From Galdieria sulphuraria (Eukaryota; Rhodophyta; Bangiophyceae; Galdieriales; Galdieriaceae), in assembly GCF_000341285.1 (NCBI RefSeq), contig NW_005178453.1, forward strand, positions 120,948 through 184,947: DNA of 64,000 nucleotides. The letters run 5' to 3'. A program made the translations under genes and the position numbers. Numbering within the stretch: the stretch's first letter is position 1; the number at the start of each line of letters is the position of its first letter. This document shows, piece after piece, positions 35,240-63,600 of this stretch. The notes below the pieces were generated by a model that saw only the letters and a list, made by a program, of their open reading frames with translations, was not told where the DNA came from and searched no databases.

Positions 35240-36715
35240 ATGGAACGTCGATGTTTTTCTTCGCCAGTCGACGACTTTGAAGACTCTGAGTTTATCCATT
35301 TTATACTAAAGGGAGACTGGAAACAAGCTATTCAAACTAAATTCGGAAAACATACCTATGAGAGCATACAGGTACATTTTAAACACTTAGGAGTTGTTAG
35401 ACGACTGACGTGTTTGCTCTTAGAGTATTGCACAGATAGTTCAGCACCGAGTCAAGCCTGAAGACGCTAGAAAGGATCCAACGGTGTACACTGGTACAGC
35501 AGGAATTGCTTATTTTTTCTATAGGCTTGGTATTCATCCATTATTGGTATGCACCTAACTTTTTAGCTTGGAAAGAAGGCCGTAACTTTTTTTCTCTTTC
35601 ACTTTTTAAAAGGAACCAAACCAACGTCTAAATTATCTTGCTGTAGCCAAGAAATACAGCGATGCTTCAGTGAATATTGTAGAAAATAACACAAGAAGGC
35701 TGGGTAACAGTCTTATGTTAGGATCAACAGGAGTTTATTTGGTAGCCTTTCTAATATCCGACGCTATTTCAGACAATAAGGAACTCTGTCAACATTTTTA
35801 TAGCAAAGTGATATCCCTGACGGATTCATGGCTTACCACAGATTCAGAAGATGAATTTCTTTATGGAAAGGCAGGCTTCTTAACTGCACTGATGTTTTTC
35901 CATGGATATGATAAGAAATGGGAGATATGTGCTAGAAATATAGCAATGCAACTGTTTGAGAATGGTCGAAAAACAGCAAACTCGTCTAATTGGAGTAGAC
36001 ATTGTCCATTGCTTTACCAGTGGCACAACAAATTTTATCTTGGTGCAGCTCATGGTACTGCTGGTATTATTCATAGTTTGTTATTGTTGGTTTCAAGAGG
36101 CTTGAAAGATTTTCAATGTTTTCCGGAGAATGAACTAAAGGAGACCTGTGAATTTTTATATCGACAAAGATGTCCTCGGACGAACAACTACTTTTCTTCG
36201 TTGGATAGTAGACGTTCGGAACTTGTACAATGGTGTCATGGTGCTCCTGGCTTTGTATATTTATTTTGTAAGGCAGCGGAACATTTCTCTGATATCACAT
36301 ATTTGAAACACGCATTGGAAGCTTCCATACCAGTCTGGAATTGTGGCTTGTTATTGAAAGGCCCTGGTTTATGGTAAGTGACTAGACTTTTTTGAAAGTT
36401 TTGACGTTGAATATTGTGAATAGTCATGGTATTGCTGGAAATGCTTACTGTTTCCTTCGACTTTTTCGTTGTTTACAACAGTTTCCTTCTGATGCACAAA
36501 AGGAGAAGCTGTTGTTTCAATGCATTCAACGAGCCGCACAAATGGGTTCATTTCTCATCAATTATTCAACAAACTCTATTCCTTGTATTCATACGGAACG
36601 GGGAATGAGAACGCCTGATAGACCATTTTCATTATATGAGGGTATTAGTGGAACAGGCTGCTTTCTGTTGGACCTGCTGAATCCGTTTGACAGTCACTTT
36701 CCATTATTTGATTGA
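35240..36715 (+). CDS. LanC-like protein (LANCL family)
   Basis: Four exons, 35240..35371, 35424..35546, 35613..36373 and 36424..36715, join in phase to 435 aa. The LanC barrel motifs appear in order: YTGTAGIAYFFYRLG, MLGSTGVYLV, LYGKAGFL, GAAHGTAGIIHSLLL, WCHGAPGFVY and CHGIAGNAYCFLRL. The Cys of the WCHG motif and the Cys-His of CHG are the three zinc ligands of LanC enzymes. Eukaryotic LANCL proteins bind glutathione and add it to dehydroamino acids formed in damaged proteins; that role is inferred. It is one of the few genes here with a bacterial-type fold, but the family is widespread in eukaryotes. Confidence 0.9.
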
Positions 36716-43260: not shown

Positions 43261-45951
43261 TTATCTTTCAACAAGATCCACGTTCATCGATTGTTGCTCA
43301 AGAAACTCATGTATTCCGTCAACTATCAATGGAATGTCCTGTGGAGCTATACCATAGCGAGATAAACGTGTGTCATTCAAGTAAGGAAAAGACAGTGGGC
43401 TAAACAATCGCAATTGATGAGCATAACGCTCAATTAAAGGAGCTTCCGTAAAATGACAATATTCTCTTAGAAAAGTATTCCAATCAAATGACGAAGACAA
43501 AGAACTCGATGCTGCAACCCTTTGTTCGCCTCGTGTATCTTCTTCTTCCACTTGCATAACATTCCAATTCATAACTGGGTTACCCCTCTCCATGGATTGA
43601 ATATTCCTCTCAGAAGACTGCTCAAATGGTGCACGACTCAACAGGTCTATCAATGAATTTTCCAACAGATTTGAAAGTGGTCTGAGTTGGTCCAACCATA
43701 ATGGATGGTCTCCAAAAACTCTATCTAGATCTTCACTAGCCTTGCAACCTAAAAAGGATTTGAGAGAGCTGGTAGAACATACTACAACTTGACAATGAGG
43801 AGGAATCCATAGCCATTCTTCCCTTGTATTCTGTGGTTTTGTCGCAGAATTGATAGGACTAGAGACAATATGATTGTTATGGTCTTCATAATAAATTCCA
43901 CTATCCAATACCCAATTTTGGGAATCACTCAGCTGTTTGGAAACTTCTGCAGTATACTTGTTGCTTACAATAAACTGAATTGCCATTATATTATGATTCT
44001 CCAAGTCCAATTGTGACGCAACTGGATGTAAAAATTTAGCACATTCTGCTTTAATCATAGAACGTCCAACACCAGGACTTGACATTTGATAACACTTCAA
44101 TGCAATCCCAATCAAATAGATCCTCCGTTTGTTCAAAATATCACTTGCACTGGTTTCAGTTTCCATGGATATTTGCTCTACAGAAGATGCATCTTGTCCA
44201 ATAAGAATAGAATTGTCGCTAGTTTGTGTTACTCGAATAAGAACATCAGGTCCACTGGAGTTTTGCCTTGTAGGAATAAATATTCCATCATTTGATAACC
44301 AAGTTTCAAACAACGGCTTCCAAGCACTCACATGATAAGTTTCTTCGCTGGCACTATGAATACCAACAACTGTGGAACTCAATGCTGGAACACACTTGAG
44401 AATAGGATCCTTTTCGAATTCTCCTAACACTCTCCGCCCAACTTTTATAGGAATATCTTCTACAAGACTATGCCGAAATAGACTCAATTCACCCAATCTG
44501 GAACAAAAACACCATCGAACATAAAGAATAAGAGTAAATATAATTTCAAACTTGAAACCACGACTAGAAGGTGAGTCAAAGCGACTAATGGATGAAAACA
44601 AACTACAAATAAAACGAATAGGAGGAACATCCCAGCATTCAATTTCGATATACTTTAAAGCAATCTTTGGAAAAACCAACTTGACAAATGTTTGTTCTAT
44701 TGGGTTGAAACTTGCTTCAATCTCTTCACCGTGTTCATTCTTAGAACAATTTTCGTAATAAAAACCAAAATGATTAGCAATATCCAGAACATATTTGGAA
44801 TCAAGTCCCATAGATACACCACCCAACAGAGTCTCTTCCATAGGAATACGAAATTCTAACATACTCGCGAGAAGCATAGCAGTGAAAGTAGTCATTGCCT
44901 CTGGTGTCCTATGAGAAGGTCTCACCGAAAGCGAAGAGTCAGGAGGAATTTGCTCTATTCTACTTTGGATTTCATCCTCTGAAGGATCAATGGATCTCGA
45001 AACAATTCTACAAGTCTCGCACAATTTCTTTAAAACATAAACAACGTAATAAGGAACACCACCAGTATAACTATGTATTTGTTTAAAGAACCAATCGTGT
45101 CCTTCTGGATGATTAGGAAAAAGAAGCTTTAGAATAGATTCATTATGATACGTCGTATTTTGTATAAAGAACTTGACAGTCTCTTCTGAAAAGGGATCCA
45201 AACGAAGAAAAGACAACCTTACTCGTGAAATACTGGCATCTCGTTGTCTTGTGATAATAGCATCTGATCTTCCTGCGACAACACAAATTACAAAAGGCCT
45301 GACTAACAAACTGGACAAGACTCTAAAAAAGGCACGATAAATGTTGTGCACCGGAGTTGGTCCATAACTGTATATCAAATCCTCAAACTTGGAGAATTCA
45401 AAACCTTCTAAAGCTCCAATTTCGTCAATGAATAGATATAAATAACGTTTTTGGGTAACTTGCAAGAGTTTCTGCAGCCATTCTTCGCAACTATTCATGC
45501 AATAAAGAACTTGAGATAGCAATTCTGAACCGTTTGGAAACTCAGCAAGTGCCTCCTCGCTTATCCACTTCAAAAGTGTCGTTCGAAAACTAGTTCCGTT
45601 TGGTACTTCAACAAGGTTCAACTTGACATATAAAGTTTCATTAAGCAAAGCGTCCAAAGCACGTTCGCCTACATTTTCACCCCTTGCAACGCCAGGAAAC
45701 ATATTGTTCATATTCAAATAACGCAACAAGCTGTCTTTGTTGGCCAAAAGAAAGGTTTGGAAATTCTCCCCAAAAGTGCTTTTACCACTCCCATACATTT
45801 GGGGTGCATAACACACGTTTGGTCGCTGACCTTGGATTACACCTTCTGAGTCCGAAGGATAAGTAGCTTCAAAAGCGTTTAGAACTTGTAATATTGCTGA
45901 TTCTCTATTGACGAGGGGATATTCTAAACCTGCAAGGTGGATTCTTCGCAT
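43261..45951 (-). CDS. Large STAND-like P-loop NTPase with possible nuclease-like and SAM-like domains (paralogue A)
   Basis: An intact single-exon frame of 896 aa. Walker A is YGSGKST (54-59), Walker B is YLFIDEIGAL (about 171-180), a sensor-like strand is VICVVAGRS (about 221-229), an Arg-containing SRVRLSFLRL follows, and a TGGVP motif lies at 296-300. This order is typical of STAND/ATPase_2 proteins. A second region around residue 565 reads SGPDVLIRV then ILIGIALKCYQ, a PD...K arrangement that may be a restriction-endonuclease-like core. The last 80 residues (about 815-885) resemble a SAM domain (FREYCHFTEAPLIERYAHQL; YGIAPQDIPLIVDGI). No signal peptide or membrane span is apparent. Function is unknown. 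It is the only intact member of the local tandem family. Confidence 0.8.
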   Translation of the reverse strand: MRRIHLAGLEYPLVNRESAILQVLNAFEATYPSDSEGVIQGQRPNVCYAPQMYGSGKSTFGENFQTFLLANKDSLLRYLNMNNMFPGVARGENVGERALDALLNETLYVKLNLVEVPNGTSFRTTLLKWISEEALAEFPNGSELLSQVLYCMNSCEEWLQKLLQVTQKRYLYLFIDEIGALEGFEFSKFEDLIYSYGPTPVHNIYRAFFRVLSSLLVRPFVICVVAGRSDAIITRQRDASISRVRLSFLRLDPFSEETVKFFIQNTTYHNESILKLLFPNHPEGHDWFFKQIHSYTGGVPYYVVYVLKKLCETCRIVSRSIDPSEDEIQSRIEQIPPDSSLSVRPSHRTPEAMTTFTAMLLASMLEFRIPMEETLLGGVSMGLDSKYVLDIANHFGFYYENCSKNEHGEEIEASFNPIEQTFVKLVFPKIALKYIEIECWDVPPIRFICSLFSSISRFDSPSSRGFKFEIIFTLILYVRWCFCSRLGELSLFRHSLVEDIPIKVGRRVLGEFEKDPILKCVPALSSTVVGIHSASEETYHVSAWKPLFETWLSNDGIFIPTRQNSSGPDVLIRVTQTSDNSILIGQDASSVEQISMETETSASDILNKRRIYLIGIALKCYQMSSPGVGRSMIKAECAKFLHPVASQLDLENHNIMAIQFIVSNKYTAEVSKQLSDSQNWVLDSGIYYEDHNNHIVSSPINSATKPQNTREEWLWIPPHCQVVVCSTSSLKSFLGCKASEDLDRVFGDHPLWLDQLRPLSNLLENSLIDLLSRAPFEQSSERNIQSMERGNPVMNWNVMQVEEEDTRGEQRVAASSSLSSSFDWNTFLREYCHFTEAPLIERYAHQLRLFSPLSFPYLNDTRLSRYGIAPQDIPLIVDGIHEFLEQQSMNVDLVER

Positions 45952-46145
45952 ACTTAGCTGCCCATGAAGTTGGACAATGAAAATCGTTTGCTACAAAATA
46001 AGACTACGACAGTTATGGTAATCTCCATTCATTTCAGAATCTTTTGATAAAGAAAGTTTAAGAAACTCCACATCCTTTACAAAATATTAAATTTCAAATA
46101 TTTCAATGATAACAAAGAAGCATTCACTAGAACAACAAGATATTC

Positions 46146-48268
46146 CTAAATATTTTTGGAAAGCAATAAAACTATTTTTTGTAGTGTTGAAATGCCAATA
46201 TTTCTCGAATGTGGATTATCCACAGCCTTGAAAGCGTTCCTTAAATTTGATAAAATGTCTTTGCCAATAAAGTTTTCTACATCGGCTTCAGAAAGAATAA
46301 CCAATTCACAGTTGTGAGGAATCACGAAATCTCCAACACTATCGCCAAAAGAATAACAACGACTAGAATGATTCAAGTCCTCAGATACGTTGGTCGCTAA
46401 CTGAGTACTCATAATAATCAACATACAATGCCAAGTAGGATGACTAGTCAATACTTGATCATGCACTGGTTTTAAAAACTTGTGAGCTTCTTCCAAAATT
46501 TCAATCCATCGAATACCATTACGACTCCATCGGCCTTTACAAGCAATACCCACTATCATCAAATTCTTCTCATTCGTTCTTCCATGCAACTTGAATAATA
46601 TATCTGGACTATGAGATGTTGAATGAAATGGAATACATATCTTTTCAAATTCTAACATTTCTTCCACTATCCTTTCCCATTCATCATTGCTTCCAAATGT
46701 CATTCTCTCTGTTCCTGATACAGCTCTGGTATAATGTATAGATTTCATATAATAAGCAGCAGATTCGGAAGAAAATTGTAAATTCATTTCATTCCAAACA
46801 CGAGACAATTGACCAAGAGTAGAAAACATTGAGCTGTTTGTAGGACGCCGAGAAAAATGTAAATAAAACAGTGTAGCAATAAGACCTTCCAAAATTCGAC
46901 ATTTCGACTCATAAAAGAATTCAACAAATTGAGACTTGAGAGTCTGTAAAAGTAACCATTCTAAACGATCATCCTTTAAGCCTTGGTCAATATATTCAAT
47001 CAGTAACTTGGGAATCAACACTTCATAGCGTTCGTTGCCGTCTGGTTCTATAACCAATCGACGATAGAGACACATATCTGTAACTAGATCAAACAAAAAC
47101 ACATCAGAAATTTGAGCTCATTTGCACAGTTTCATCAAAATCAAATCGAATACGATACAAAGATAATAACGTAAGCATTCTTAACAAGCGCTTACGCTGC
47201 TCACTGAGACTTATCAGAAGAGGTAAGAATGTCGCAACACAATAATTTGTTACTAGAAAGCTATTCATTATGATCAAGAAGGTTTCCTTAGATAATAAGA
47301 AATTGTTGTTGGATGATTTATACAGCAAAAGGTAACTGATTGCTCGAACAAGTAAACCAGGAACACCACCAGTCAATTCCAACAACAATTCTGCAAGTTC
47401 ACTAGTTGAGAAGTCTTTGTGACAAAGAATTTCTGAAACCTTTGGGCTCCCAGTGAATAAAAAGAAAGAACTTTTCTCCAAATGTTCCACGATACTATGT
47501 TTCTCAAGCGGCGCAAGAGGAATAAACACTAACTGAACTCTTGAGACTGAAGCTACGTAATTATATATATTTAAGTCTTCACTTTTCCCAACAACTATAA
47601 AAAACAAGTCGGGTTCTTTGCACAACTCACGAATAATATCGATAAAGTCGTCGTATGGTCGAACTCTACCGTCATGGGTTCTCTTGAAATGAAATTCGTC
47701 GAGACTTTCGTCAAGGACACCAACTTCGTCAAATGCCAACAAAAGAAATTGATCGGAAGGAATGCCCAAAGTCTTCCGTAGCTCCAGAATGAGAAAGCTT
47801 GGATAGGGAGGAAAGTGTCTGTAGGCTTCATCAGGCTTCATAAACGGTAGACCCATCTGATTACAAGCTGATCGGTACAATAAATAGTAGACTGCCCACT
47901 TTAGGTTGCGTTTTTCCTCGATGGGTCGAGTTGGCTTCAACTCCCTTAAATCCACAAAGAGCAACGAAGCCCTTTTCAGCTTCTCCAGGAAACCTCTTCG
48001 GTTGGCCTTCTCAGACTCACCAACGTAATCGAGACCTATCAGTGCACTTTCACCCATATTATACACCAGTTCCAAATAACTTTGTACGAATTTCGTCTTT
48101 CCACTTCCGAAGAGGTGGGGACCAAAGGGTATGACTGGTTTGAAAGGAATACCAAGTTTACGTAGAGTGTATAGCTGAAAACAACTGCTTTGTTACTACG
48201 CCAACATCTTGTTCTCGGTCTACTACAACCATGTCATATACGGTTTCTGGTTGAAACTCACTAGACAT
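46146..48268 (-). pseudogene. STAND-like NTPase paralogue B with two single-base frameshifts
   Basis: From ATG 48268 the frame reads VVVDREQD, then breaks at an AAAA/TTTT run (48178-48181). One base fewer would connect it to FGPHLFGSGKT (Walker A) and a 323-codon frame with LLLAFDEVGVLD (Walker B), FFIVVGKS, SRVQLVFIPLAPL and LTGGVPGLL. A second break near 47108-47113 (AAATTT) separates this from a 318-codon frame with SHSPDILFKL, IVGIACKGRW and a CELVILSEADV end. Both breaks behave like a single inserted base in a homopolymer. Either this is a recent pseudogene or the sequence has errors. It lacks the SAM-like tail of paralogue A. It lies 194 bases upstream of A. Confidence 0.75.
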
Positions 48269-48829
48269 ATCGTAAGCTATGAAGTAAACTATGCGACAGT
48301 AAAATACAACAATGGTCGATCAATCTTCTTCCAACAGTCCAATGCTCAAACTCTTGATTGCGACGAAAGTCTTTTGAAGCTTTGAACAAGTCTTGATAAG
48401 AACATGATTTGCCTTTTAGATAAAGACTATCTTTCTCATTTTTTTTGTAATAAAGAGTGGATATTGGTTTGTGTGCAATTGTATATAAAAACAACTTCTC
48501 TGAGCTATTAGAAAATAGACCAGCTGAGGAACTTTCAACTTAAGGCGAACTATAAATAAAGTCTTTGACGAATACAATACCTTGTATAAAACCCATTTGT
48601 CAACACTTTGGGACACTCTCCTGAGAAGTAACAAGAAGCAAACAAGACCTGTCAAACTGTGACAGTGACTTTTACAACAATAGGCTTATTTTGATTTTCG
48701 TGGTTAGTACCATATTAAGACAATAATCCTCAGAGTGAAAGCAAATAAGTTTTAACCGAGTTTCAAACATACAAAACAAGTTTATTTGCTCTTCAAAACA
48801 AATCACAAAGTGAAGGATTGAGTTAGAAT
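48269..48829. other. Spacer of about 560 bases between paralogues B and C
   Basis: AT-rich; only short frames of 77-79 codons on the minus strand, without resemblance to the neighbouring NTPases. It should contain the promoter of paralogue B and the 3' flank of C. Confidence 0.5.
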
Positions 48830-50944
48830 CTATTGCCAACTTAAGAAACTGTTACGGATTCTATCAAGTAAATCTAATCCAAAATCCCAAAAAGTAGGAT
48901 TATGAGAAACACCAAATACTCTTTCAAGTCCGCTCAATATTTCTTCGTCAATCAGCATTTGGACATCTCTTTCACAAAGAATAACAAGTTCACAATTATC
49001 AGGTACTTTGAACGAATCATTTCCAATAAACATTCCACTGGAGTAACAACGACTCTGATTACCCAACTCATTAGAAACATTCAAGGATAACTTTGTACTA
49101 ACGATAATAAGCATACAATGATGAGAATCCATTGCACTGGATAAGACTTGATCATAAACAGGATATAAAAATTTCTTGGCTTCATCTATAATATCTGACC
49201 AGCCAATTCCTTCCGACTTCCAACGTCCTTTACATGCAACTCCAACAGTAAGAACTTTGGGTTCCACAGGAGATTGTAATTGGAATATAATATCAGGACT
49301 ATGAGAAGTAGCGTCCAAAGGAATGTAAATAGTCTCTAAATAAAGTGTCTCTCGAATAATCTTATTCCATTCAGTATTGGCAAAAGTTCTTCGACTCTTG
49401 TTCGATTCACTTCTTGTTTCTCTAGAACTAACAACAGACTTGATATAGTGAATAGGTGATATTGTACTGATTGGAAGTTTCATTTGTTTCCATATCGGAG
49501 ACAATTGACACAACAATTCTCTCAACTCATTTCGATTCTTTGAAGACAACATCAAAACTAGTCGTAAAGCAACAATTCCTTCAAATACACGACACTTTGA
49601 ATAGAAGAAACAATCTACTGGTTCTACATCAAGTGATCCAAGAAGTATCTTTTCCAAAGAAGATATGGAAGGGTCCCTCTTGAAGATTCCAACAAATACT
49701 TTTGGAATCAGGACTTGAAAAGTATTCTGGTCAATAGGATATCGATATAGTCCCATTTCAGTGACTGCATCAAATAAAAAAGACTCCGAGGTCAATATGT
49801 CATCTACTTGAAACGGTATACGATAAAGAGCCATCATCAAAAGTATATCAAAAACACTTTTTCTATCCTCGTCCAAAATCAATATTCGTTCCACAAATGG
49901 TTCAGCACAAATTCTTCGGAAATCGTAGTCATTCATACACGTCAAACATTCTTCTTTCGATATGAAAGGCTTATTTCTCATTTCCACATAATTCAAAAGC
50001 ATATTCACAGCACGAGTCAACAAACCAGGAACTCCACCTGTACATTCCAATAACGAATCTGCCAATTCATTTACTGAAAATGAAGAACTACATAAGACAT
50101 TACAAACCGGAACTTGAGTAGGTGTCTCAAGAAGACTTTTTTGAAGGAACTCAACGATACTGGAAGCGTCCAAAGGTGATAAAGGGATAAAATGTAATAT
50201 AACTCTTGATAGCCCAAAAGCCACATCATTCTTAATACTTAAACCCTTGCTTTTCCCAACAACAATAAAAAACAAGTCGGGTTCTTCGCACAAATGACTA
50301 ATGATACCAAAAAAGTCATTGTACGGTCGAACCACACCTTTGTCATTCTTCTCCAGTTCAAAAAAAGTTGCCTTTGTATCAAACACACCAACTTCGTCAA
50401 ATGCCAACAAAAGATATTGATCGGAAGTAATGCCCAAAGTCTTCCGTAGCTCTGGAATTAGAAAGCTTGGATAGAGAGGAAAGTGTCTGTAGGCTTCATC
50501 AGGCTTCATAAACGGTAGACCCATCTGATTACAAGCTGATCGGTACAATAAATAGTATACTGCCCACTTTAGGTTGCGTTCTTTCGGTTCTGTGGGCTTC
50601 AACCCCCTTAAATCCACATAAAGCAATGAAGCCCTTTTCAGCTTCTACAAAAAGGTTCTGCTCGAAGGGTCCGAAGCAAAAGTCGACAGAAAATTTTCAC
50701 CAAACCTTTGCACCAACTCCAAATAGGTTCGGGCAAAGGTCGTTTTGCCCGAGCCAAAGAGATGGGGGGCAAATGGTATGGTCAAGCGATAGTTGCAACT
50801 ACTTGTTACACCCCTGAGTTGCTCTCGGCCGCTATGAAGATAATACAGTTCTTCTGTCACTCGAAAAACATCTCTTTCACGATCTACTACCACAACAGAC
50901 TCAAACTTGACAAAAGCTTCCCACTTTTCATCCAAACTCGCCAT
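48830..50944 (-). pseudogene. STAND-like NTPase paralogue C with one in-frame stop codon
   Basis: From ATG 50944 a frame with VVVVDRERDVF and FAPHLFGSGKTTF (Walker A) meets TAG at 50645-50647. The same frame then continues without interruption for about 604 codons to 48830. Paralogue B has Glu (GAG) at the aligned place, in FLEKLKRASLL versus FL-stop-KLKRASLL. The remaining frame has LLLAFDEVGVFD (Walker B), FFIVVGKS, SRVILHFIPLSPL, CTGGVPGLL, SHSPDIIFQL, VGVACKGRW and CELVILCERDV. So a single nonsense change, if real, removes most of the protein. Read-through or an error in the sequence would make it intact. It has no SAM-like tail. Confidence 0.75.
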
Positions 50945-51064: not shown

Positions 51065-52090
51065 TCCAACTTCTTCTCTTTATCAACTGATGACTATATC
51101 ATAACCTTTATGGCTTGGACTGAGATGATTTGAACTATGGAAGAACGATCAATATGGCTTTTTCAACTATCGATATTCTTATTCTCGTATGCCAATATAA
51201 TGGCAACTCTCATAGGGTACAAGAACGATTGGAAGGAAGCCAATGTTTATTTCACAAGTTTTTTATGCTCTTTGAGAGTATAAAGCTATTAAACATGGCC
51301 CATTTTCAAATAGATAAGAAAGTTTCTTTCAGAATTTTCGAGAGTAGTCATGAGAGTTCCGAGCAATATAGATTGTTCATGAAGAATTTGTTCCATAGAC
51401 GTCTCTCTCTAGATTTTCTGTATTTTATGGAATAGTTTTTACGTCACTTTTGCTTCATTTCGAAACACGGAACTAGAGTATGAACCAAGTCATTCTCTTT
51501 TGTAGTCTACCCAAAAGCTCCAGTTGAAATATATTATTTAGTAGAAATGCAGAAACCCGCAAGCACAACACTCCTTTATTCTCAGCAATCACCAAATTCC
51601 TTTCTTACGATATCATGACAACTAGCAGCTTATCACAAAAGCTACAAAAATTGATGATAGCAAAAGACAAACCAAAACAAACGTGCAAAGAAGGATCCAA
51701 AATATCTCGTGATTTTATCAAATCTCAGAAACAACATTGACTCACACAAGTGTATCATCAATACTCAATTTCTGTAAGAGTCAATAACTCCTGTTTCTTT
51801 CTCCTCTGAAATTACTCACAGACAATAGTAGCATTTGATACTGTGAATTCTGTTAAGAGGAGAAAAGATATTTTTCAAGAAATTCAATTCAATCGAATTG
51901 AGTCTATTCTAGCGACTCTCTTCTCGTATCTTGTCATTGCATAGCATTTGAATCATAGTTGAATTCCTTCTCCTCAATAGTCGACTATACATTTGAGGTG
52001 CTTTTGAAGGTAAACATGACCGTTTAGTTTAAAATGTTTTGCTGCATCCTCTTGTACGATAAACTTTGTAAAAACCACAACTTTTAAAGA
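51065..52090. other. Region without a supported gene, upstream of paralogue C
   Basis: The plus frame at 51130-51435 has no recognised family. On the minus strand near 51640-51720 a short stretch reads like a diverged version of the aromatic FFRVL-type segment of paralogue A, but it is too short to claim. Otherwise AT-rich non-coding sequence. Confidence 0.4.
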
Positions 52091-52099
52091 TATACAAGA

Positions 52100-52403
52100 A
52101 AGCAAACTATAAAAAGTACAAAGCTACTTTAGGAGCGAGATAACTCCAAGAGGGCTATTATCTCTTCCAATATAAAAAAAGGTAAAACTTTTAAAAGATC
52201 TGCAAATTCAAAGAACGATTTGTCCAGCTGCATTTGAGTCCTAATCTTCTTCCATTCTCAACCATCAGCTCATTGAATAAGTGAGTCACTATACAAAAGT
52301 TCATTCCGTTAGGCACTTGGAAGAAGACTCGTGCGAAATATAACCCGATAGGGACACTAATAGAGGCTTCCTTTTGGATATTAGTAACGAGAATCAAAGA
52401 CAA
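52100..52403 (-). pseudogene. Decayed fragment of an A-type NTPase
   Basis: Two frames on the minus strand align with residues about 100-185 of paralogue A. The first (52403 to 52191) has GLYFARVFFQVPNGMNF against TLYVKLNLVEVPNGTSF. The second, in another frame just downstream (about 52180-52115), has KFYLFFILEEIIALLEL against KRYLYLFIDEIGALEGF, which is the Walker B region. The frames are broken and neither end can be traced, so this is a relic of a fourth family member. The alignment was made by eye. Confidence 0.55.
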
Positions 52404-53033
52404 CTCAACGTTTCGTATAAAAAACGGGTCTAGTCAAATAGAAAAAGAAGAGAAACGCTACTAGAGACAAGTCAAACTACAAAAAAAAAAAAAGACGCTC
52501 AACTAGCAAACATACTCAACAGCGAATAAAAATGTCGTCAACTCGCAAACAATATTCAGCAGAATAAGATAAAACAATTTAACTGATTCCTTTGTTGAGT
52601 CAAATCTCAAATTTATATTGTGATTGTTATCCAAACCGGTAAAGGTCTTGTTCTTTTAAATATACTCGATAAATTTCGTCTATTAGTAAAAAAGAATATA
52701 AATGTAGAAATAATGGAAAAATAAGAATCTTTCATCTCTTCTTGGCAAAGTAAAAAAGAAAGGTGAATCTTGAAATATATGTGCAAGGAGAAGTAAAAGC
52801 GTCACCACTTTTACTGTTGTTATACCAGTCAAAACTCTGTACAAGTTGCTTATGAAGAGAACAAAGCGAGACCCTTGTAACTTTTGAGGCTCGATCCTCC
52901 TTGTCGTAAGTAGTTTATGTATTTGTACATAGACAAAAGAATTCAAACCTTTGGTCAGTTTTTTGTTGTAGCCTTGTCCTCTCTATACTTTCCAACTCTA
53001 GGGTTGAGTATATAATTATTTCTTCTTTGCAGT

Positions 53034-53423
53034 TCACAGTGGCATAAAGACTATTCCTTGAGCCTATTTTGCATAGAAGGAAAGGCTATAGTTCTTACAC
53101 AGAAAGCCAACAGAATTATTTCCATGAAACTGGAAAATGACCATTTTATACATTGTGAAGCAGTTTTCCAAGGTTTTGAGAGGCTAACAAAGGAAGATTC
53201 TGAGATCGAGAACGAGTCGAAAACTGGTTATAGCAAAACCCGTTTTTTGATTTGTTATCCAAGTAGGGTCACAGGAAGTCTGAAATTTACCTTAGAGACA
53301 AGTTTTGTCAAACTCAACTCTGTTAAAAGGTACAGTGTCGATAGTAAGTTGACAGGAACTTTGTTACAACACTATTTTTCTCCTTTCACAACATTACTCT
53401 GGTGTGAGATTGGTTGTATCTAG
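53034..53423 (+). CDS. Unrecognised frame, possible terminal exon
   Basis: A frame open from a TTTGCAG acceptor-like site at about 53033 to a stop at 53423; the first ATG in it is 53127. The translation is mixed hydrophobic and charged, without membrane helices or low complexity, and looks more protein-like than surrounding sequence. I recognise no domain and found no matching upstream exon. It lies between the NTPase relic and the second copy of the direct repeat. It may be a gene fragment. Confidence 0.25.
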   Translation, partial: SQWHKDYSLSLFCIEGKAIVLTQKANRIISMKLENDHFIHCEAVFQGFERLTKEDSEIENESKTGYSKTRFLICYPSRVTGSLKFTLETSFVKLNSVKRYSVDSKLTGTLLQHYFSPFTTLLWCEIGCI

Positions 53424-53578
53424 CACATTTATTATTAAAGTAGCTCTTTCCAAGTCTCCAAGTAAAATATTTTCTTTCATAAAACTCATTAGCCATGCAA
53501 GATACTATACCTCCAATGGAAAGGAGACAATACATAGCAATTCTTCTCGTCATAGTCCAACTGGAAATTACACAATAG

Positions 53579-54414
53579 TTTAAGAAGGGCCAGTGTTGTT
53601 AAGGCTTTGAACTTGGTCAAGTTTACTTCTGAAACTTTTCCGACTTTAATTTCCAACTCATTCGTTGTTTTAGTTGGACAAGTGGATTTCTATTATCTAC
53701 GTTTCTTTTTTAAGCCTTGCAGTTCATTCCTTTATAAAAATCCATCGAGTCGTCTTGAGCTCTGAGTTCCGGATAGACTGTAGTGTTTTTCTTTGGTTCG
53801 TACAACATTGACTATCTCTTTGACTTTTACATACCTTATGCAAGACTTGTTGTTATTTCATTTCTGGTCTTGTATGGAAATCTGTGAGCTGTATTGTCAA
53901 GAAAAGAGCAAAGACAAAGGAGTTTAAGCTTTTGTTGAGTTTCACTACATTACCCAATTAGTTGTCTCGCAAGTTCATTTAGATTTAGTTTTTACTGATA
54001 ACTGTTGCAGAGCATTTTTGTGTATGTATTAGCAGTTGACAGTCTAGTCTTGTAGTCGATTGTTGAGAATCAGTCTTGGGTTAATATTTCAAAGATGTTT
54101 TTCAAGAAACCAGTTAGACACTTAGTTGAGTGTTTTGGTCAGTATAAAGAGTTACTTTCCGTATGATAGTTTTCGTCTTCTATGTGACTTCTTTCAAGAT
54201 AGGAAACGTGGTCTGTAACTCTGCAACAGGTTTTATAGTGTAAACGATATTCGCACTCTTTGTAAAATTCATTCATTTTCCAGAATAGCATAGGAAAGTC
54301 TCGAGTCCATCATTGCATATTTTTAATGGCTGTTTGTGTTGTCGAGCGTTTATATCAATTCTCTATTGATACGAGTATATATTTTGAAATAATATGGATG
54401 GAGGGCTTTAGATA
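53579..54414. repeat. Dispersed direct repeat, copy 2 (about 0.8 kb)
   Basis: The second copy of the segment described at 41013-41828, same orientation, about 12.6 kb away, estimated by eye at roughly four-fifths identity with many one- to ten-base indels. It starts near GGGCCAGTGTTGTTAAGG and ends near GAGGGCTTTAGA. The two copies bracket the NTPase family. Confidence 0.85.
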
Positions 54415-56487
54415 ACGAAAAGCTGAATAAACTTGTATTTTGAAAGCAAGGGACAAGTTTTCAGTTCAAAATATACTCAACTTGTTGGGAACCATGAAAT
54501 AAAGCAAGCAAAAGGACACTGTTGAAAATCTTGGTTGTTTTCACCTGGGTAAAATGTTTTGACGATGGCGACTGTAGCTACTAGTCCGTTTTGAGAAACG
54601 CCTTTGTTTTTTTGAATAAGTGGGTTCACAGAGGGTGAAATATATCTAAAACGATATGTAAGTCGTAAGAGTGATAGTAGTGAAGCCAGTATTGCTGTTG
54701 TTTCTGAAAGGCATCTATTGCAAGTTGTCATTTGGTCCTTATATAGTTGAAAAGGAGGGTAACAGTAATAGCAAAGTATGAATGGGAAAAAAGGAGACTT
54801 GTGTGAAACAGTATTTGCCTTGTCAAGAGTGCTGCTGATCTGCTTTCACTTTCAACACACTGAAAGTCATGCTGTTGAAAGTAGTGGTAGTTGTAGCTGT
54901 CAAAAAGGTGAAAAGGAGAAACAACATTTTGTACAAACAGCTTGCGTTTGGATAGTATACAAAGCAGCTCTGAAAGAAACTCACGAAGGATGGGGAGAAC
55001 ACGAACAATATTACACGAGTGCACATATTGATATCATCGTGTCCGACTAGAGTTTTTGGTTCGACTCTGAAGATAAAGTCCAACTTCTGGTAAATAATTC
55101 CTAGAAAGCATACGCAGACGAACAAAGTGGTTTGCAAATACATTGACACGAACCATAAAACATTTTTCGACTATCACAGCAAAATCAAACCATTCGCCAC
55201 TACTTGAAATTCAACCAGAACAGCAACAACAACAAATATGAGCCAAAGCATAGTACAGTATAGCATAATCATCAATTAAACAAAGAGAATGATTCCTGCT
55301 TCTATCTACTACTGCCTTCGTCGTTGGATGACAGGAAGCGGAAAAGTGCCATTGATTTAGTTGAATTGGAAAAAGAAAAACAACAACAACAACAACAACT
55401 TAAGAAATAAGACATGTATTACTGTAGTAGTACATGGAATATTAATAATAGTTTTCGTCATAAAAGTACGAAAAAGAACGAATTTTGACCATACAGGAAA
55501 ATTGTATTGTCGACTCTACAAAAGAAAAAAGCATCATTTGCACACGTACAGACTACTCCTGCACATTAATATCAGTAGAACTACATACGGTCCTGATTTT
55601 GAACAACAAATAGAGTATCGAGTTACTTTACTCGTCGATTTTCGATTTTGCTTGTACATGTTTGAGACTAATCTTTATCTTTTGATTCTTGAAACGAACT
55701 TATTTCTTATCTCATGATAGTATGATGAAGCAACTAGTCGTCATTTCTTTTCCGAAAACGTCGAAGTAAAAACTTTTCAGAAGCTTTTTTCATTGGAAAT
55801 CTCAATCACAAAGAATCTCTTTGTCCCGTGATAGTTGCGTTGCATTTGGAGGGATAGGCAACTTCCAAATGATCAATTCGAGACAATTTCGTCAGTTGAA
55901 TCAAGTAATCTTTAACAAGTGAACTTGCAGCATCATGAAAGTGTACAACATACTGTTTTCTGTGATCTAGAATCTACTACTGATCTATCTGAACATACTG
56001 TAATGCTCTCATGTTAAAACCATCTTATGATTATTTGTGCCCCAAAACATTTCCACCTTACTTGTTCGACCCTAAGGCCAACTTCATATGAAGTTAGTCA
56101 TCTAGTCGATAAGGATAAGATAATATCTCTATTTCGTTTTTTCTCTTCTTTATCGGAGTAATTATAGAATGGTGAAGATCTTGTTCTTTAGAGTTGTAAT
56201 ATGTTCTTAAAAGAAAAGGGATGAAGACGATAAAAAGTAGTATTCAAAGACTGCAGGATGATGTAAATTCAAAGAAAGAATCAACTAGATTGCAGTCAAA
56301 GTTCTGTACAAACGATCTGCTGGGAATAGAAATTGAAATTGTCTAGTACTACCTACTGGTTGTTTTCCCTTATTCATAAGAATTGTTATAAAGGACAAAA
56401 ATTTATGTTTTATATAGTATATACTTTTCGAATTGCATAATATAGAAAGGTCATTTGAAAGAAATTCAAGGAAAAGAAGAAATGAAT

Positions 56488-56562
56488 GCTTCCCTGGTTT
56501 CACAAGGTTAGAATATCAGACCTATGATTTGCAGATTTTGAGGTTGATCCTCACAAAAAGCA
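56488..56562 (+). ncRNA. tRNA-like segment, probably a tRNA-derived repeat or tRNA pseudogene (copy 1)
   Basis: A 75-base stretch can be drawn as a degenerate cloverleaf. The outer five acceptor positions pair, a D-arm-like GTTT/GAAT flanks CACAAGGTTA, an anticodon-arm-like stem encloses CCTATGA, and a TGAGG/CCTCA stem resembles the T arm with a shortened loop (TTGAT). Box A-like TGGTTTCACAAGG and box B-like GAGGTTGATCC occur at suitable spacing. The acceptor stem is only partly paired, so a functional tRNA is unlikely. Confidence 0.3.
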
Positions 56563-59012
56563 AGCAAAATCAACTCTGTGATTTTTACACAAGTAGCAGC
56601 AAAACACAAACTAATAGTCATGTTCTAATTTCAGGATCCTTTCGTATATCCTTTGATGCTTGAACCCATTCGCAACCTTTGGTGGTTTTCATCCACCTCT
56701 TTATCTTGAACTATTACCACAATTGATGAAAGTCATAAATAACAATGTATTTATGCCATACCAATACCTTGTTTCTATTGATGTGTTGAATTTGAATCTT
56801 ATTTTAGTGTGATATCCGAAACAATTCTGGTTACAGCTGTATTGAAGTAAGCAGTAATCATTTGCTTTAGAGTACTACTCTGAATCTTACCACTTCCAGT
56901 GAAATCTCAACAGGATATGGCACAATTATTCTAGTCGATATTTAGGAAGAGGCCTGTTTGATTTCTTCCTTCTCAACGTATCTAGAAACTGGTTACTGTT
57001 TTATATTACTTGAATTGCATACTGAATTCAGTGATTTTATGTTCATTGGAAAGAAAGTAAGATATTTCTTGATACTACTAATTTAAAATGACTTTTTGTG
57101 TAAGAGTTGGTCATTTGTTGATTACTAGTCGAATATGTCATCAAGACGAAATTCTGTTTCATAAGTTAGTGAAATGTCCTCTATGGTTGATTCAATTTTT
57201 GAATTCTTAAAGATTATACTGAATTTATCGAACGAATTAGTCCATATCCCGAGAAAAACGATTTGCCATATAGTATTAATAGTAGTATTATTACTAAGGA
57301 TACAGAAGACTAGCGAAATGAAGACTTGGTTTGAAAAAAACTTGGTAGTAGCAGAATACCGAATTATTCCTCTCATTGCTTGCACTTGATTTGCGATACT
57401 GGATACGTTTTCGTTGATCGTTTCATCCTAGATAGTTTCATGAATCTACTCAAGCGATGAATCGCATTATACCTTTGCAGCGCCACTAATGTGTTACTCT
57501 TAGTTCATATGTTTTGATATGAACTAGTTGTTTGTTTTGATATAACTACGTTAACCTGTACTTGATTCAATTGATTACTACTTGTTTTAAAGTGCTTTCA
57601 GCTATATCATTTCGTTCGAACCAAGCATCACTGGGTACGCTATAGTCACTTCGCAGACAAGAGTCAGGAATCTGGTGTCAATTTTTTTCAAGTATTCGCG
57701 TCTAAATGCGTTGATTGTTAGAAACGTTCAAAGTTGGCTATTGAAATATAGCCCTAGTAATGAATGGAGTCAATGTGTTAGACAAGATAACGGCACAACT
57801 CGATGCATACAAAAGTTGAATCAACTTTTCCATTCAAAACCAATTGTTTGATAGTAAGACTAACATACGTTGTTATTTTTTAGGAGTATCTACGAGAGAG
57901 TTGGTTGAATTGTCATTATGTGGACATTGGTTTATCCAATAGAGTTTCTGTTAGATAGTGTTTGTACAAGATGGCTTTTTTAAGGTAGAATTGATACTTT
58001 ATTGACTACTAGTTGTCAAGTTGATGAAAACTTTGTACCTTTGCACTTGAAATCTTGCTGTTGTATGTACAGAGTCTTTATATTTGAAGCAGTGTTTTAT
58101 GTGGTCTTTAGGTACCCTGTATGCTTGATTCAGCGTCGAATTGTCCAAGATTATCTTGAATTGTCTAAAATAATCTAGTCCTTACTCTAAAAGGATGATT
58201 TGTAGACTATTATTTGGATTACTTAGAATCAAGTCGAAGATCAATTCATGTGAGAATCACTGGGTAAGAATCCGAATTGCGACAAAGCATCAATTTTCCC
58301 TTGATGTTTGTATGCTGTTTGACCAATCGGGCAGGTGGTCGACCACAATTCAATTCTATACATATGTGGATTGAATTTCATGTTGAATGACAATGTGTTT
58401 CTAGAATATTATGAGTATGTTACTATTGATGACCATAGATCAGTGAGCATCTACAACTCTTGTATCTGTACGGAATTCAATGAGACTTTGTTTGCATACA
58501 CTTATTCCTATCAGTATTGGTGAGAGCATTCTCCTTTTACTGCCTTGGCACCAAGCTCAACTTGCGTCGTAGAATCATTATTTTTTTGATAAAGGTATTG
58601 TGCTAAAAGTCTATTGCTTGTTTCTATTGACTGGTCGGAGAGTAGTCATCATATTGTTATCTTATCATTTCAAGAAAGTTGCAATTGCTGAACACTAAAA
58701 ACTGAACTTTAATTGAAATGAAGTATGACAGCGATAAACTATGCCATTCATAGACTACAGAATCATTGATTTAGAACAAGATTCAACTAGATTGTAGACG
58801 ATTGGTCACAAACGAGCTGCAAAAAGAAGCAACGTAACCTTGCTGATACAAGCTATTGAATCTCTTTCTTCATGTTTATATGTTATATAGTACAAGATAA
58901 AGAAAATGATTCCTTTCATTTCAACTTTTATACAACTCGCTAAACAAAAAATACACCAATTTGCTTTGGAAGAAAATGTATGATGAAAGACATAAAGTGA
59001 AAAAAGAAAGAA

Positions 59013-59090
59013 ATGGCTTCCTAGTTCAATAGACTACAGAGATAGTGTTATGAGCCAAAAGTCTTGACTTTGATTCTCATTAGAAACATC
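59013..59090 (+). ncRNA. tRNA-like segment, copy 2
   Basis: Resembles 56488-56562: GGCTTCCTAGTTCAATAGA at the start, TTATGAG in the anticodon position and CTTTGATTCTCA at the T-arm position. The sequence before both copies also shares short blocks such as TTCAACTAGATTG and TTATATAGTA at similar distances. It is more degenerate than copy 1. Confidence 0.25.
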
Positions 59091-61600
59091 AACGATATTC
59101 TGGTCGTCATTAGTAGAAAAAGTATTCCCTACTATTACCTCATACTGGTAACAGTAGAACGTTTATGATACTTTGTTTTGTTTATCCATTCTACTGATTT
59201 GCATGACGTGTATTTGAACACCATAAATTAAGAAATAGGCTGTTGAAACAAAATGGTTTGTTATTCCATGGCATCCCTAATCGTTACAAATTGCCCAATG
59301 CTTCAAAGAACTTATTCCTTTAGGCATTCTTTATCTTTTTCACACTCCCCTTATTCTTCTTTCTATTTTATTTTTCTTATTGAAAATGAATATCATACAA
59401 TTCTCACTGATAGAAGACAATCAAATTTCTTTTCAAAAAGTAACATTGTAGAATAAAGCAAGGAATATACAATCTCACTTGCAGAATCATTATTTGCATC
59501 TTTGTAGATATTATTCTCTATACAACTGTAACTTTCATTACTAGTTTGGAAAGTTTATACAACAACATTTATAGGAAGAACAATATCAAGTTTATGATTC
59601 AACTGGATCTCGATCCCATTATTCCATGAAGAAGGATCAGTCCTCATCATACTCGACGGGTGGTCTTTGGATTTGAACTAATCAATTCTTATGTCAATCA
59701 ACAACTTGACCGGAAAAAAGTTGCTTGTATTTATTTCCATTGCAATAATTATTGGGGTCTTGGTATAAACTGTTAGAAATGATTATAAAAGCAGACTTTA
59801 CTATTTGATTTGCACATTTGCCGACAACAATAACAGCAACTCTTAGAAGAGATAGGACAACACTTCCCACTACAGCACTGTTCTTGAAGAGTCGTGAACA
59901 TAGTATTTCATCTATAGTTCCTCATTTATTTAGAATTGTAATTGGTGTTATACGTCCACTCTCTTCCCTATATCGTAAATTCAATACATTCCTAAATTGT
60001 GGAACTGATATATTTTTCCATCTAATCGACAAGACTAGAGACAATAGGAATATGAGCTAGTGTCCAGGAATCAGTTTGAATTTAACTGATTTTAAAAGAT
60101 CATAGTTTTGGCTACGTTGAACCGAGTTTAAACTGTATTGAGTGGAGAAATAAGGGATTGTGCTAAATAGACTGATAATCAACCATCAAAAAAGTGAGCA
60201 GTTCAAGTGCTTTGCTTGAGAGAATCAGATCAATGTCGTCGGGTTAAGAGCAATTTATTGTTTCTTTAAGCACCTTTCATTCTCTTGTTCACGGAGCCCT
60301 ACCTATAGGATTGCACGAGTTCGTCATAAATAGAATAGTATTGGTAGTTATCATATCGTTTATGCCTAGTGACAAGCTCAATTTTAAGTTGCAGAGAGAG
60401 GGACTATAATCTATCCTGGCTACTTTTGTATTGAACTTGATGTCAAATAGAATGACTTGACCTTTTTCGTATGAATTCATATTCTTGTTATGAATACTGT
60501 ATTGAGGAGTACCTATCATATGCTTTTTCAATTTACCCTTAACCTTTTCCCACTGTTTATCATACACCTCATCCTGTAACTTAGTTTCATAAAAGCCTTG
60601 GTATCGGCGAAACTATCAAGTTTTATGGCTATGAATTGTACAGTTTTGATAGAACCCAGTTGTCACCAATCTGTTCCATCAAAGATTGATTTGATAGTGG
60701 GACATGCATAATGGCGCAGTTAACTACAGAATCGTAGGCATATGAGGCAATTCAACTGTATTGGAAGGAACTGTATGCTCGGCAACTTTAGAGATCATTC
60801 CTATTTTAAGTAGAAGAACGCAAACATCCGGTATCATGTTGTTTGAAAGATTTGAATCCACATAATAACTTGAGAAGATTGACGAAGAAGTACTTTGATC
60901 CTAACCTTTGATTGTTAGTACTTCAAGTCATGCTGAGACATATGGTTATGTCCGTTTACTTTTTTTGTTGAAAAAGTTGTCTCTTATCTTTGTTATGTCA
61001 AGCTATTACAAATTCAAGTTGATCATCTGGTACAGCTTTTACTAGGGCAAGGTGTCTTTCACAGCAGACTCTTTGTTATCTTTATGGATGAAGAATTAAG
61101 TTTGGCTTGTGTTGATTCACTAACTGATTGTTTGATCGAATGATTGATTGCTTTGTGTCATACTAGCCTATTTATCTATCAACTGACAAATAATTGCACT
61201 CGGATTTGTACAATTGACTGATTCCAGTATTTGAGGAATAGTAGTTGGTCAATTCTATTCAAAAAGGTGATTTAAGAATTCACTTTAGACAGATAGTTGA
61301 TTTGCGGGTCAAAGGCAAGTTATAACCATAGAAAAAGATATATACCAGCTAGTTGATACAAATAGGAGTAGTTTCATTGTTCATTCTCCAGTTAAATACG
61401 GACTGGATTGGACAGTGCTAATAGAATGAAATGGGTTGTTTGGACCACACTGGGTTGTCCGTCTATTATGAGAGTCTTTTAGCTCATCAAGATCCTTTAT
61501 CGTGGCACTATAAAACTCTCTGAGCCATAAGAAGAGTAGTTATACCCTAGACTTTGGTTCATATAGTATTTATATATTCTCGATAGTCTATTTAATACGA

Positions 61601-61858
61601 TTGCTTCACGATTGTATGGATTTATTGGAAGAATTTACCCAAGTAGACTTGGCGGACGAAATACCAGCGAGTACTAGTATTCTTTCATCTAAATACACAG
61701 AGGACAATCTAGTAGATAGTTTTCTTGACAAGAATCATAACGAGAGAAAATTCCCACATTCTTTCCTGATAGCTGCAAATCACTTTCAAATTCTAAACAG
61801 ATCGTTGATCGAAACTCGTTTGAGTCTGTTGTTTCCAGAATTGACCCAATGTTGAATC
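61601..61858 (+). other. Short unrecognised frame of 84 codons
   Basis: Begins at a TTG codon, with the first ATG at 61616. The translation is mixed polar/hydrophobic (DLLEEFTQVDLADE) and ends at TGA 61858. No start context, intron or family evidence; it may be a gene remnant. Confidence 0.15.
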
Positions 61859-61969
61859 ATATTGGTATACTGTAAAATGAAGATTTCGTTATTTCCATTG
61901 GGTCTGATTCTGCATAATATGTTGAGCACCAACATACACACTTTTTACTGATTTTTTCTGCTAATGGGA

Positions 61970-62200
61970 AAGATGGGCAATTTGGAAAGAGTGGCCGATT
62001 TGGAATGGGCCCGCGCAATTTTGATTTGAAAATTGTCATTATGGGTGTGGGGTGGGAAAGAATGGGCCCATTTGGAAATGGGAGAGAGTGGGGAAATTGC
62101 GATGGGGGAAAATGGGTGGGGAAAGGGTGTGAGGAAATTGGAGGGGGGGCCAACCAAAAGGCGATTGTGTTGATTTGGAAATTGCCATTATGGATGTTTG
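61970..62200. repeat. G-rich low-complexity patch with internal direct repeat
   Basis: Runs of GGG to GGGGGGG alternate with TTTGGAAAT-like text, and GGGCCC occurs twice. The patch is bracketed by two near-identical segments, GATTTGAAAATTGTCATTAT (62024) and GATTTGGAAATTGCCATTAT (62175), about 150 bases apart. Base composition differs sharply from the surrounding AT-rich DNA. Confidence 0.7.
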
Positions 62201-62484
62201 AAATTGAGGACAGTGTGTGTAAAAATCAATAAAGCCATTTGAAACAGTAAAAGATCATTCCAAGAAAGTTAACTTTGATTTCCACACTGATAACGAAACA
62301 TTAAGAGCCAATGCTTTAAAGACACATTCTATGCAAAAGAAGAGAAGAATGACAAAAAAAGGTTATTTTTTTACTCTTTTCAAAAGAACTTGTTTTGAAT
62401 AACCATAACAAAACAATACGTTTCAATTCAGCAAAATCACAGTCTGTAACATTTTTAGGTTCCACCTCAATATTGTTTGAAATG

Positions 62485-63600
62485 ACTCTTTAAAAATGGA
62501 CAAGTACCCTTGAGAGTAACGAGTTTGGAAAAACACAAGTGATATTGAGTTGAGTAGCCAGTTGAATGATATCATCGTTTGGTTTACCAAGACATTGAAA
62601 AAAGCTACAAGTAGTAAAAGTCAAAGAAAAGTTGTCCTTTTCGAAGCTCAAGTCTTTACGAAACCTTGAGACAAAGACACCCAAGAAACACAAGAAAAGA
62701 ACCATTGAAAACTTTTTGTTTACCTGTTGAAGCATAACCATACTTGAAGGATTGGAGTACAGTCTTATCCATAGCCAAGAACTGTGTTCTAGTCGTCAAC
62801 GACAAGGGCTTGATAAAGTCTGTACAAAAAAGTGCAGCAACTACAGCCTTGGAGATAGGTTTGGTTTTACTAGATTGTCTTCAAGTGATTCCTATAAAAG
62901 TATGTTTCACTCTCAAAGCACTGACCTTACATCGGGACAATATTCCCCTACCATTCCCTCAAATTATCCATACAATAAGCGTATTGTACCCCTACATTTG
63001 TGAGACTTTTCCTTTGAACAAGTCTCCACGGAATCACCTTTACATATTCCTAAACTCCTTGATATCTCCTTTTCTAAACTCAAATATCAATTCATGATGT
63101 TGGTTGACTATTCTCAATTACCAGATCCAAGAAATCACTTGCAACGAAAAAAAGTGAATTCGCTTTATGAAGCATTTTCTTCTTTGCAACTATTTCATGA
63201 AAAAGCCTTTACGATCAAATACAATAGAAGCTTCAATAACGTCTTTACATACCAACTCTCTGCAAATTTGTCAATCTTTGTTGGTTGCTTTTTGGATGAG
63301 GCAACAAGACTTGGCATTGGTTTCTCATAAGATTGCTATTACTGTAGAATTCCCTACCTTGTTGATTCTTACCCATCATCAAGTTAAACAACAGTCTTTT
63401 CCCATGTTTACCCAAAACCTTGATGACATTACATGCCCATTCTCTCCTATAGTTTGAGAGAGTGTTGTCATCCGTATCGGAGACTCGTTACCAATTGGTT
63501 GTGTCGAGTCTGTTGAAAGCAATACAGCTGGTTGAACATATTCTTGTAGCTTTTTTTTTTCCTTTTTTGGGAACTGACTGTTTCCTTGTAAAACCAATCA
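62485..63600 (-). pseudogene. Possible decayed or multi-exon gene of unknown function
   Basis: On the minus strand several adjoining pieces read like protein and are bounded by plausible splice sites. One piece (about 63465 to 63280) includes REWACNVIKVLGKHGKRLL and ends at a GTATGT donor; a 63-base intron leads to VAKKKMLHKANSLFFVA. A second stretch (about 62860-62735) reads KAVVAALFCTDFIKPLS, followed by a longer intron-like segment and a terminal frame to about 62490. In between, at least one stop (TGA near 62883) interrupts the frame. No family was recognised. It could be a real gene with missed exons or a relic. Confidence 0.25.

What the first reader, a model, noticed from the sequence alone, without database searches (positions are those of the whole stretch)
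43261..50944. Tandem family of STAND-like NTPases with a PD...K module
Three large minus-strand paralogues share GSGK(S/T), Walker B with DE(I/V)G, a VVxGxS sensor-like strand, an SRVxLxFxxLxPL segment and TGGVP, then a C-terminal part with SPDI-x-F/GPDVL followed by GxAxK and a CELVILxExDV-type end. The first set is the STAND/ATPase_2 pattern. The second looks like a divergent restriction-endonuclease-like core. NTPase plus nuclease-like architecture is known for Crinkler/RHS-type proteins, and an expanded archaeal-type ATPase family has been reported in Galdieria. Which group these belong to, and what they do, is open: genome defence, transposon-derived function or heat adaptation are all possible.
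Basis: partly seen in the sequence, partly recalled or inferred. Interest (0 to 1): 0.85.

Follow-up and report, generated by a model that had tools for sequence, protein, structure and literature searches.

The report
Galdieria archaeal-type ATPase gene trio
Three neighbouring genes, probably from a heat-loving red alga, encode relatives of archaeal ATPases with a tail that may be a modified DNA-cutting domain; one gene is whole and two carry reading-frame damage.

Summary
The three minus-strand paralogues are real and carry the motifs named (two of them looser in A). They are not three intact proteins: A (43261-45951) is one open frame of 896 aa, C (48830-50944) has an in-frame TAG, and B (about 46146-48268) is broken at two places. 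The ATPase half is the firm result: profile-profile comparison matches it to archaeal ATPase_2 (PF01637) from the VDRE box and P-loop to TGG-P (97% probability, 212 columns); AAA_14, Cdc6, NB-ARC and NACHT sets score 25% or less. This fits the 'archaeal STAND ATPases' of Galdieria (211 copies, subtelomeric, origin disputed in print); the organism is inferred. The C-terminal half keeps PD, A-x-K and a helix glutamate in 3 of 3 copies, and its predicted elements partly suit a restriction-endonuclease-like fold. But models are poor, no fold match is significant, comparison with archaeal nuclease-like C-termini is near noise and out of register, and the acidic residue of (D/E)xK is alanine in all three. 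Nuclease activity is unproven. Crinkler/RHS found no sequence support. B and C show past purifying selection (dN/dS about 0.3-0.4) and a conversion-like tract. Verdict: members of a known, unexplained family.

The parts
43261..45951 (-). Gene A: intact frame, 896 aa, ATPase_2-type NTPase plus C-terminal PD...AxK...E region plus about 120 aa extra tail
   Evidence: hhalign of A alone to the 28-protein ATPase_2 set 88.5% over 216 columns
45778..45792 (-). A Walker A (GSGKS)
45415..45444 (-). A Walker B (YLYLFIDEIG)
45052..45066 (-). A TGGVP motif, aligned with the GG-P motif of archaeal ATPase_2
44230..44259 (-). A GPD strand (SSGPDVLIRV)
44095..44109 (-). A GIALK (AxK in place of D/ExK)
44029..44055 (-). 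A segment with the invariant Glu (IKAECAKFL)
46146..48268 (-). Gene B: disrupted paralogue; frame pieces 48268-48158, 48192-47104 and 47117-46146
48094..48108 (-). B Walker A (GSGKT)
47719..47745 (-). B Walker B (LLLAFDEVG)
47359..47373 (-). B TGGVP
46593..46616 (-). B SPD strand (SHSPDILF)
46536..46550 (-). B GIACK
46473..46499 (-). B segment with the invariant Glu (ILEEAHKFL)
48830..50944 (-). Gene C: paralogue of 704 codons with one in-frame TAG at codon 100
50645..50647 (-). In-frame TAG of C, next to the conversion-like tract
50741..50755 (-). C Walker A (GSGKT)
50387..50413 (-). C Walker B (LLLAFDEVG)
50027..50041 (-). C TGGVP
49283..49306 (-). C SPD strand (SHSPDIIF)
49229..49243 (-). 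C GVACK
49166..49192 (-). C helix with the invariant Glu (IIDEAKKFL)

Best explanation
These are members of the expanded archaeal-type (ATPase_2) NTPase family of the red alga Galdieria. Shown by comparison: an N-terminal P-loop NTPase of the ATPase_2 class. Inferred: a winged-helix-like middle and a C-terminal restriction-endonuclease-like domain in which the acidic residue of (D/E)xK is Ala, so that catalysis, if any, would use PD, the AxK lysine and a glutamate of the next helix. Most likely mechanism (inferred): the protein binds DNA through its middle and C-terminal parts, and ATP binding and hydrolysis switch that module between a resting and a DNA-engaging (possibly DNA-nicking) state, as proposed for other NTPase-REase proteins. 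Copies multiply and exchange sequence by duplication and gene conversion and also decay (B, C), as in a fast-evolving subtelomeric conflict or defence family rather than a housekeeping heat-tolerance enzyme.
For: NTPase class: hhalign with 28 ATPase_2 proteins 96.0-97.5% over 212-219 columns for three forms of the query, against 0.5-25.1% for AAA_14, Cdc6, NB-ARC and NACHT sets; 0 of 60 column shuffles of the N-terminal half reached its score with the 14-protein ATPase_2 set (shuffles were not run with the 28-protein set); C alone 91.0%, A alone 88.5%; ATPase_2 is the first or second Pfam hit of A and of C's N-terminal half, below threshold. Foldseek of the C model lists mostly AAA+/STAND-type ATPases. 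C-terminus: invariant E, P-D, A-x-K, E in 3 of 3; strand after PD, strand ending at AxK, helix with E, strand, helix, strand in both models; first PDB hit EndoMS and first viral hit RPB5, neither significant. Selection and conversion: dN/dS about 0.4 and 0.3, with one patch at dS 0.21. Family setting: passages of PMC6629376 Appendix 2 and PMC9812998.
Against: Mean pLDDT 50.6 for C, with block means of 23-45 over the Walker A region, and 43.1 for the C-terminal model; only two of the three strands expected before the helix are predicted. Foldseek hits of the C model have TM-scores of only 0.11-0.16 on the query. 0 of 417 PDB and 0 of 286 viral matches of the C-terminal model have E <= 0.001, and 15 of the 50 listed PDB hits are Ras-like GTPases against 9 with an REase-like domain. 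hhalign of the C-terminus: 0.8% and 1.8% with ATPase_2, 0.3% and 0.2% with DUF234, 0.7% with AAA_14; against C-terminal parts 1, 13 and 10 of 100 shuffles reach the observed scores; in the ATPase_2 alignment the AxK lysine and the PD aspartate do not fall on the ExK lysine and EID aspartate. B1 alone matches ATPase_2 at 5.1%, and B1, B2 and the part of C after the stop gave no ATPase_2 hit. The match of the combined profile uses C with its stop read as a residue. Species is inferred; no other Galdieria copies could be fetched; no telomere-like array is in the window.
Confidence: 0.45

Rival explanations
1. Pseudo-nuclease: the C-terminus has the REase-like fold but is catalytically dead (A in place of D/E) and serves only to bind DNA or protein under control of the ATPase.
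For: AxK in 3 of 3 copies.
Against: PD, K and a following helix Glu are all invariant although A and C share only about 22% identity; active enzymes with a displaced acidic residue are known (NgoMIV/Cfr10I type, recalled).
Confidence: 0.35
2. Heat-adaptation ATPase: stress-type STAND ATPase amplified for temperature tolerance, with a C-terminus unrelated to nucleases.
For: Proposed for the Galdieria family (Schonknecht et al. 2013, not read; as cited in passages of PMC6629376 and PMC9812998). The C-terminal fold is not established here.
Against: [quoted passage not shown] two of the three copies here are disrupted.
Confidence: 0.15
3. Crinkler-RHS (CR) type effector or transposon-derived protein: NTPase + HTH + REase.
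For: Same order of parts as described in the review PMC5289972 (passages), which also says that CR proteins occur in free-living eukaryotes.
Against: No RHSP or Crinkler family among Pfam hits at E up to 10; the NTPase matches archaeal ATPase_2. No CR alignment was at hand for a profile-profile test.
Confidence: 0.12
4. Relic cluster: the copies at this locus are on the way to loss and have no present function.
For: B broken at two places, C by a stop.
Against: A is open over 896 codons; dN/dS of about 0.3-0.4 between B and C shows long purifying selection.
Confidence: 0.15

Closest known systems
Galdieria 'archaeal STAND ATPase' family (211 copies in G. sulphuraria 074W)
   Same: Archaeal-type ATPase paralogues, no plain database hits, local duplication; GC of the window 37.0% beside 36.89% reported for 074W
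   Different: Domain make-up beyond the ATPase was not described in the passages read; this trio was not matched to named members
Archaeal ATPase_2 proteins (PF01637), some with a DUF234 (PF03008) C-terminus
   Same: NTPase matches from the VDRE box and Walker A to GG-P
   Different: The Galdieria proteins have a longer NTPase insert and are 704-896 codons long against 338-517 aa for the archaeal ones compared; AxK in place of ExK; C-terminal similarity not significant and out of register
Crinkler-RHS (CR) proteins
   Same: NTPase + HTH + REase order; large fast-evolving families (recalled)
   Different: No Pfam match; the ATPase half matches archaeal ATPase_2
REases with a displaced acidic residue (NgoMIV, Cfr10I; recalled)
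   Same: PD...xxK...E(helix) arrangement
   Different: No sequence or fold match to them was seen in the listed results

Membership tests
ATPase_2 (PF01637) | profile match over the ATPase domain | tested here: met
   hhalign 96.0-97.5% with 28 proteins against 25.1% or less for other P-loop sets; 0 of 60 shuffles with the 14-protein set. Plain HMMER stays below the gathering score (E 0.014-0.1) and is weak in the window-ORF control
ATPase_2 (PF01637) | Walker A, Walker B with acidic pair, GG-P after the sensor region | tested here: met
PD-(D/E)xK nuclease superfamily | alpha-beta-beta-beta-alpha-beta core | tested here: inconclusive
   both low-confidence models show two, not three, strands before the helix, then strand-helix-strand; no significant fold match
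PD-(D/E)xK nuclease superfamily | P-D and (D/E)xK residues | tested here: inconclusive
   PD and K invariant, D/E replaced by A in 3 of 3; E in the next helix invariant in 3 of 3
DUF234 (PF03008) | profile match | tested here: not met
   no Pfam hit; hhalign 0.3% and 0.2%; 13 of 100 shuffles reach the score
Crinkler-RHS | CR/RHSP profile match | tested here: not met
Galdieria archaeal STAND ATPase family | sequence match to the published members | not testable with these tools
   no eukaryote genome collection held; window genome not held
Galdieria archaeal STAND ATPase family | subtelomeric position | tested here: inconclusive
   no telomere-like array among 9 tandem-repeat rows; right flank with few recognisable genes

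The most novel reading that the evidence does not exclude
The large Galdieria family known only as heat-linked 'archaeal ATPases' is a eukaryotic radiation of archaeal ATPase-nuclease proteins with a rearranged active site (PD...AxK...E) that acts on DNA at chromosome ends, a red-algal counterpart of trypanosome RHS and Crinkler systems derived separately from archaea.
Probability: 0.2. Interest if true: 0.85.

Novelty: new member of a known kind. Interest (0 to 1): 0.5.

Why it matters
The Galdieria ATPase expansion has been given as a case of archaeal gene transfer linked to heat, yet later work reported no hits outside the species and no functional evidence, and doubted its origin (PMC6629376 passages). 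Profile-profile comparison here supports the archaeal ATPase_2 class for this trio. If the C-terminal half is a nuclease-like domain, the family would be better explained as a DNA-acting, conflict- or telomere-linked system, and that can be tested with one purified protein and a few point mutants.

Tried and rejected
Searches for relatives that gave nothing: viral contigs with A and with C after its stop, prokaryote genome contigs with the same part of C, plasmids by tblastn with A, PADLOC; NCBIfam gave three chance hits, E 0.045-0.22. Solved structures by sequence: hits only at E 1.2 or worse. A SAM-like reading of A's tail was considered by eye and got no Pfam hit at E up to 10 and only chance PDB hits, so it is not claimed. 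A DUF4143/AAA_14-type C-terminus was tested: 10 of 100 shuffles reach its score. I first read the ATPase_2 C-terminal alignment as putting AxK on ExK; a column check showed that it does not, so that argument was dropped and my odds lowered (best explanation 0.50 to 0.45, novel case 0.25 to 0.20, heat rival 0.12 to 0.15). An alignment of the C-terminal part that shifted A's first helix (A2) was replaced by A4. An intron across B's first break was rejected by eye because it would delete the conserved VDRE segment.
Full report
What is there. The window has 37.0% GC, no prokaryote genome is held for it, and ordinary genes lie to the left (SDA1, RWP-RK, RibBA-type, MutS, LanC-like and others). It is most likely a Galdieria chromosome; this is inferred from GC, gene content and the published family, not shown. 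Gene A is an uninterrupted 896-aa frame at 43261-45951. Gene C has 704 codons at 48830-50944 with one in-frame TAG at codon 100. Gene B lies between them and is broken: an ATG at 48268 opens a frame that stops at 48158, the conserved text continues in the frame 48192-47104, and then in 47117-46146. B's two large pieces share 57% and 44% aa identity with C; A and C share 22% over a 794-position alignment, E = 1.9e-16. tblastn with A, B and C against the 64 kb gave, beyond these genes, only matches with E of 0.45 or worse.

Motifs. Walker A (GSGK(S/T)), Walker B (..DE(I/V)G), V(V/A)GxS, SRVxLxFxxLxP and TGGVP are present in A, B and C. In the C-terminal alignment A4 the invariant columns of three rows include a Glu of the first predicted helix (E18), P113-D114, G131-x-A133-x-K135 and E151 in the helix that follows. 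The acidic residue expected before x-K is therefore Ala in 3 of 3.

NTPase class. Pfam gave ATPase_2 below threshold for A (E 0.1; 0.014 for its N-terminal half) and for C's N-terminal half (0.082, behind AAA_22 with 0.067); B's pieces and the part of C after the stop gave no hit. I collected DUF234 and ATPase_2 loci, NB-ARC, AAA_14, Cdc6 and NACHT. hhalign of the N-terminal half gave 97.4% with 28 ATPase_2 proteins (from 30 loci; 212 columns), 79.2% with a 14-protein subset, 30.5% with 35 DUF234-type proteins, 1.8% with 30 AAA_14, 2.2% with 29 Cdc6, 0.8% with 6 NB-ARC and 25.1% with 29 NACHT proteins over 40 columns only; the full alignment gave 97.5% with the 28 and at most 18.2% with the four control families, and A with C alone 96.0% and at most 5.4%. 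The NB-ARC set is small and most NACHT loci are below the family's cut-off, so these two are weak controls. With the 14-protein set 0 of 60 column shuffles reached the observed score (46.8 against at most 27.7), and the reversed template gave 0.1%. Single proteins against the 28: C 91.0%, A 88.5%, B1 5.1%. A plain HMM of the 28 against 306 window ORFs of 60 aa or more placed A, C and B1 second to fourth (E 0.038, 0.27, 0.34), behind the MutS ORF (0.035) and just ahead of the ABC-transporter ORF (0.36). So the class call rests on profile-profile comparison, which may be why published plain searches found nothing (my inference). C enters these profiles with its stop read as a residue.

C-terminal half. 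AlphaFold2 on C (4 rows) had mean pLDDT 50.6; the Walker A region had block means of 23-45, residues 551-670 of 60-86. There a strand follows PD, a second ends at AxK, then come a long helix that holds the invariant Glu, a strand, a helix and a strand. A model of the C-terminal part alone (3 rows) had mean pLDDT 43.1 and the same order. In both, only two of the three strands expected before the helix are predicted. Foldseek of the whole C model: 5 of 605 matches have E at or below 0.001 (two proteasome ATPases, an SCMC complex chain, ORC1, TnsC), with query TM-scores of 0.11-0.16 among the 50 listed. Foldseek of the C-terminal model: 0 of 417 at or below 0.001. The first is the nuclease EndoMS (E 0.052); among the 50 listed I count 9 entries whose proteins contain an REase-like domain (EndoMS, Nt.BspD6I, two MUS81-EME1, Cap4, Avs3, RPB5 and two RNA polymerase chains taken to be RPB5; assignments recalled, aligned domains not checked) and 15 Ras-like GTPases. 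Viral library: 0 of 286; the first is an RPB5 (E 0.023), and 3 of 50 listed are RPB5-type by name. hhalign of A4 with the C-terminal part of the 14 ATPase_2 proteins gives 21.0 (1.8%), reached by 1 of 100 shuffles; but a column check shows the AxK lysine on the Glu of ExK, two columns off, and the PD aspartate on a different Asp, four columns before the EID one. With DUF234 C-termini 13 of 100 and with AAA_14 C-termini 10 of 100 shuffles reach the observed scores. I read the nuclease-like fold as possible, not shown.

Evolution. NG86 estimates between C and B: dS 0.98 and dN 0.39 (354 codons), dS 1.81 and dN 0.55 (316 codons); dN/dS about 0.4 and 0.3. These genes were long under purifying selection, so their breaks look recent. 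One 60-codon stretch (aligned codons 80-140) has dS 0.21 against 0.5 to saturation in the other stretches, a conversion-like tract; in the DNA alignment the nearly identical stretch begins right after C's stop. A and C are near saturation (dS 2.1, dN 0.88).

Comparison with the literature. PMC6629376 (passages) reports 211 'archaeal STAND ATPases' in G. sulphuraria 074W, no hits outside the species, copies next to every telomere (unpublished data of its authors) and a patchy temperature response. PMC9812998 (passages) reports such ATPases as highly duplicated in Galdieria subtelomeres. PMC5289972 (passages) describes Crinkler-RHS proteins as NTPase + HTH + REase, the NTPase thought to regulate the nuclease. 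The 2013 paper and Zhang et al. 2016 were not read (for the latter). The listings showed no title or abstract start that joins the Galdieria family to a nuclease, and the two mentions of 'nuclease' in PMC6629376 concern other things; this covers the held library only.

Verdict.

Noticed in passing
window about 50380-50650 (C) and 47700-47990 (B): Stretch of unusually low divergence between B and C (60-codon dS 0.21 against 0.5 to saturation elsewhere; limits read), like a gene conversion tract; the stop codon of C lies at its edge.
   Followed up: partly
window 43264-43650: A has about 120 extra C-terminal residues absent from B and C; by eye SAM-like, but no Pfam hit and only chance PDB hits.
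   Followed up: partly
window 51100-64000: Right flank with few recognisable genes: 10 of the 52 listed ORFs were scanned and gave one weak Pfam match (RabGAP-TBC, E 0.0098, window 63004-63330) and chance hits; compatible with a subtelomere, but no telomere array.
   Followed up: partly
window 35610-36377: LanC-like gene (PF05147, E 6.3e-37) near an RWP-RK gene; ordinary.
   Followed up: no
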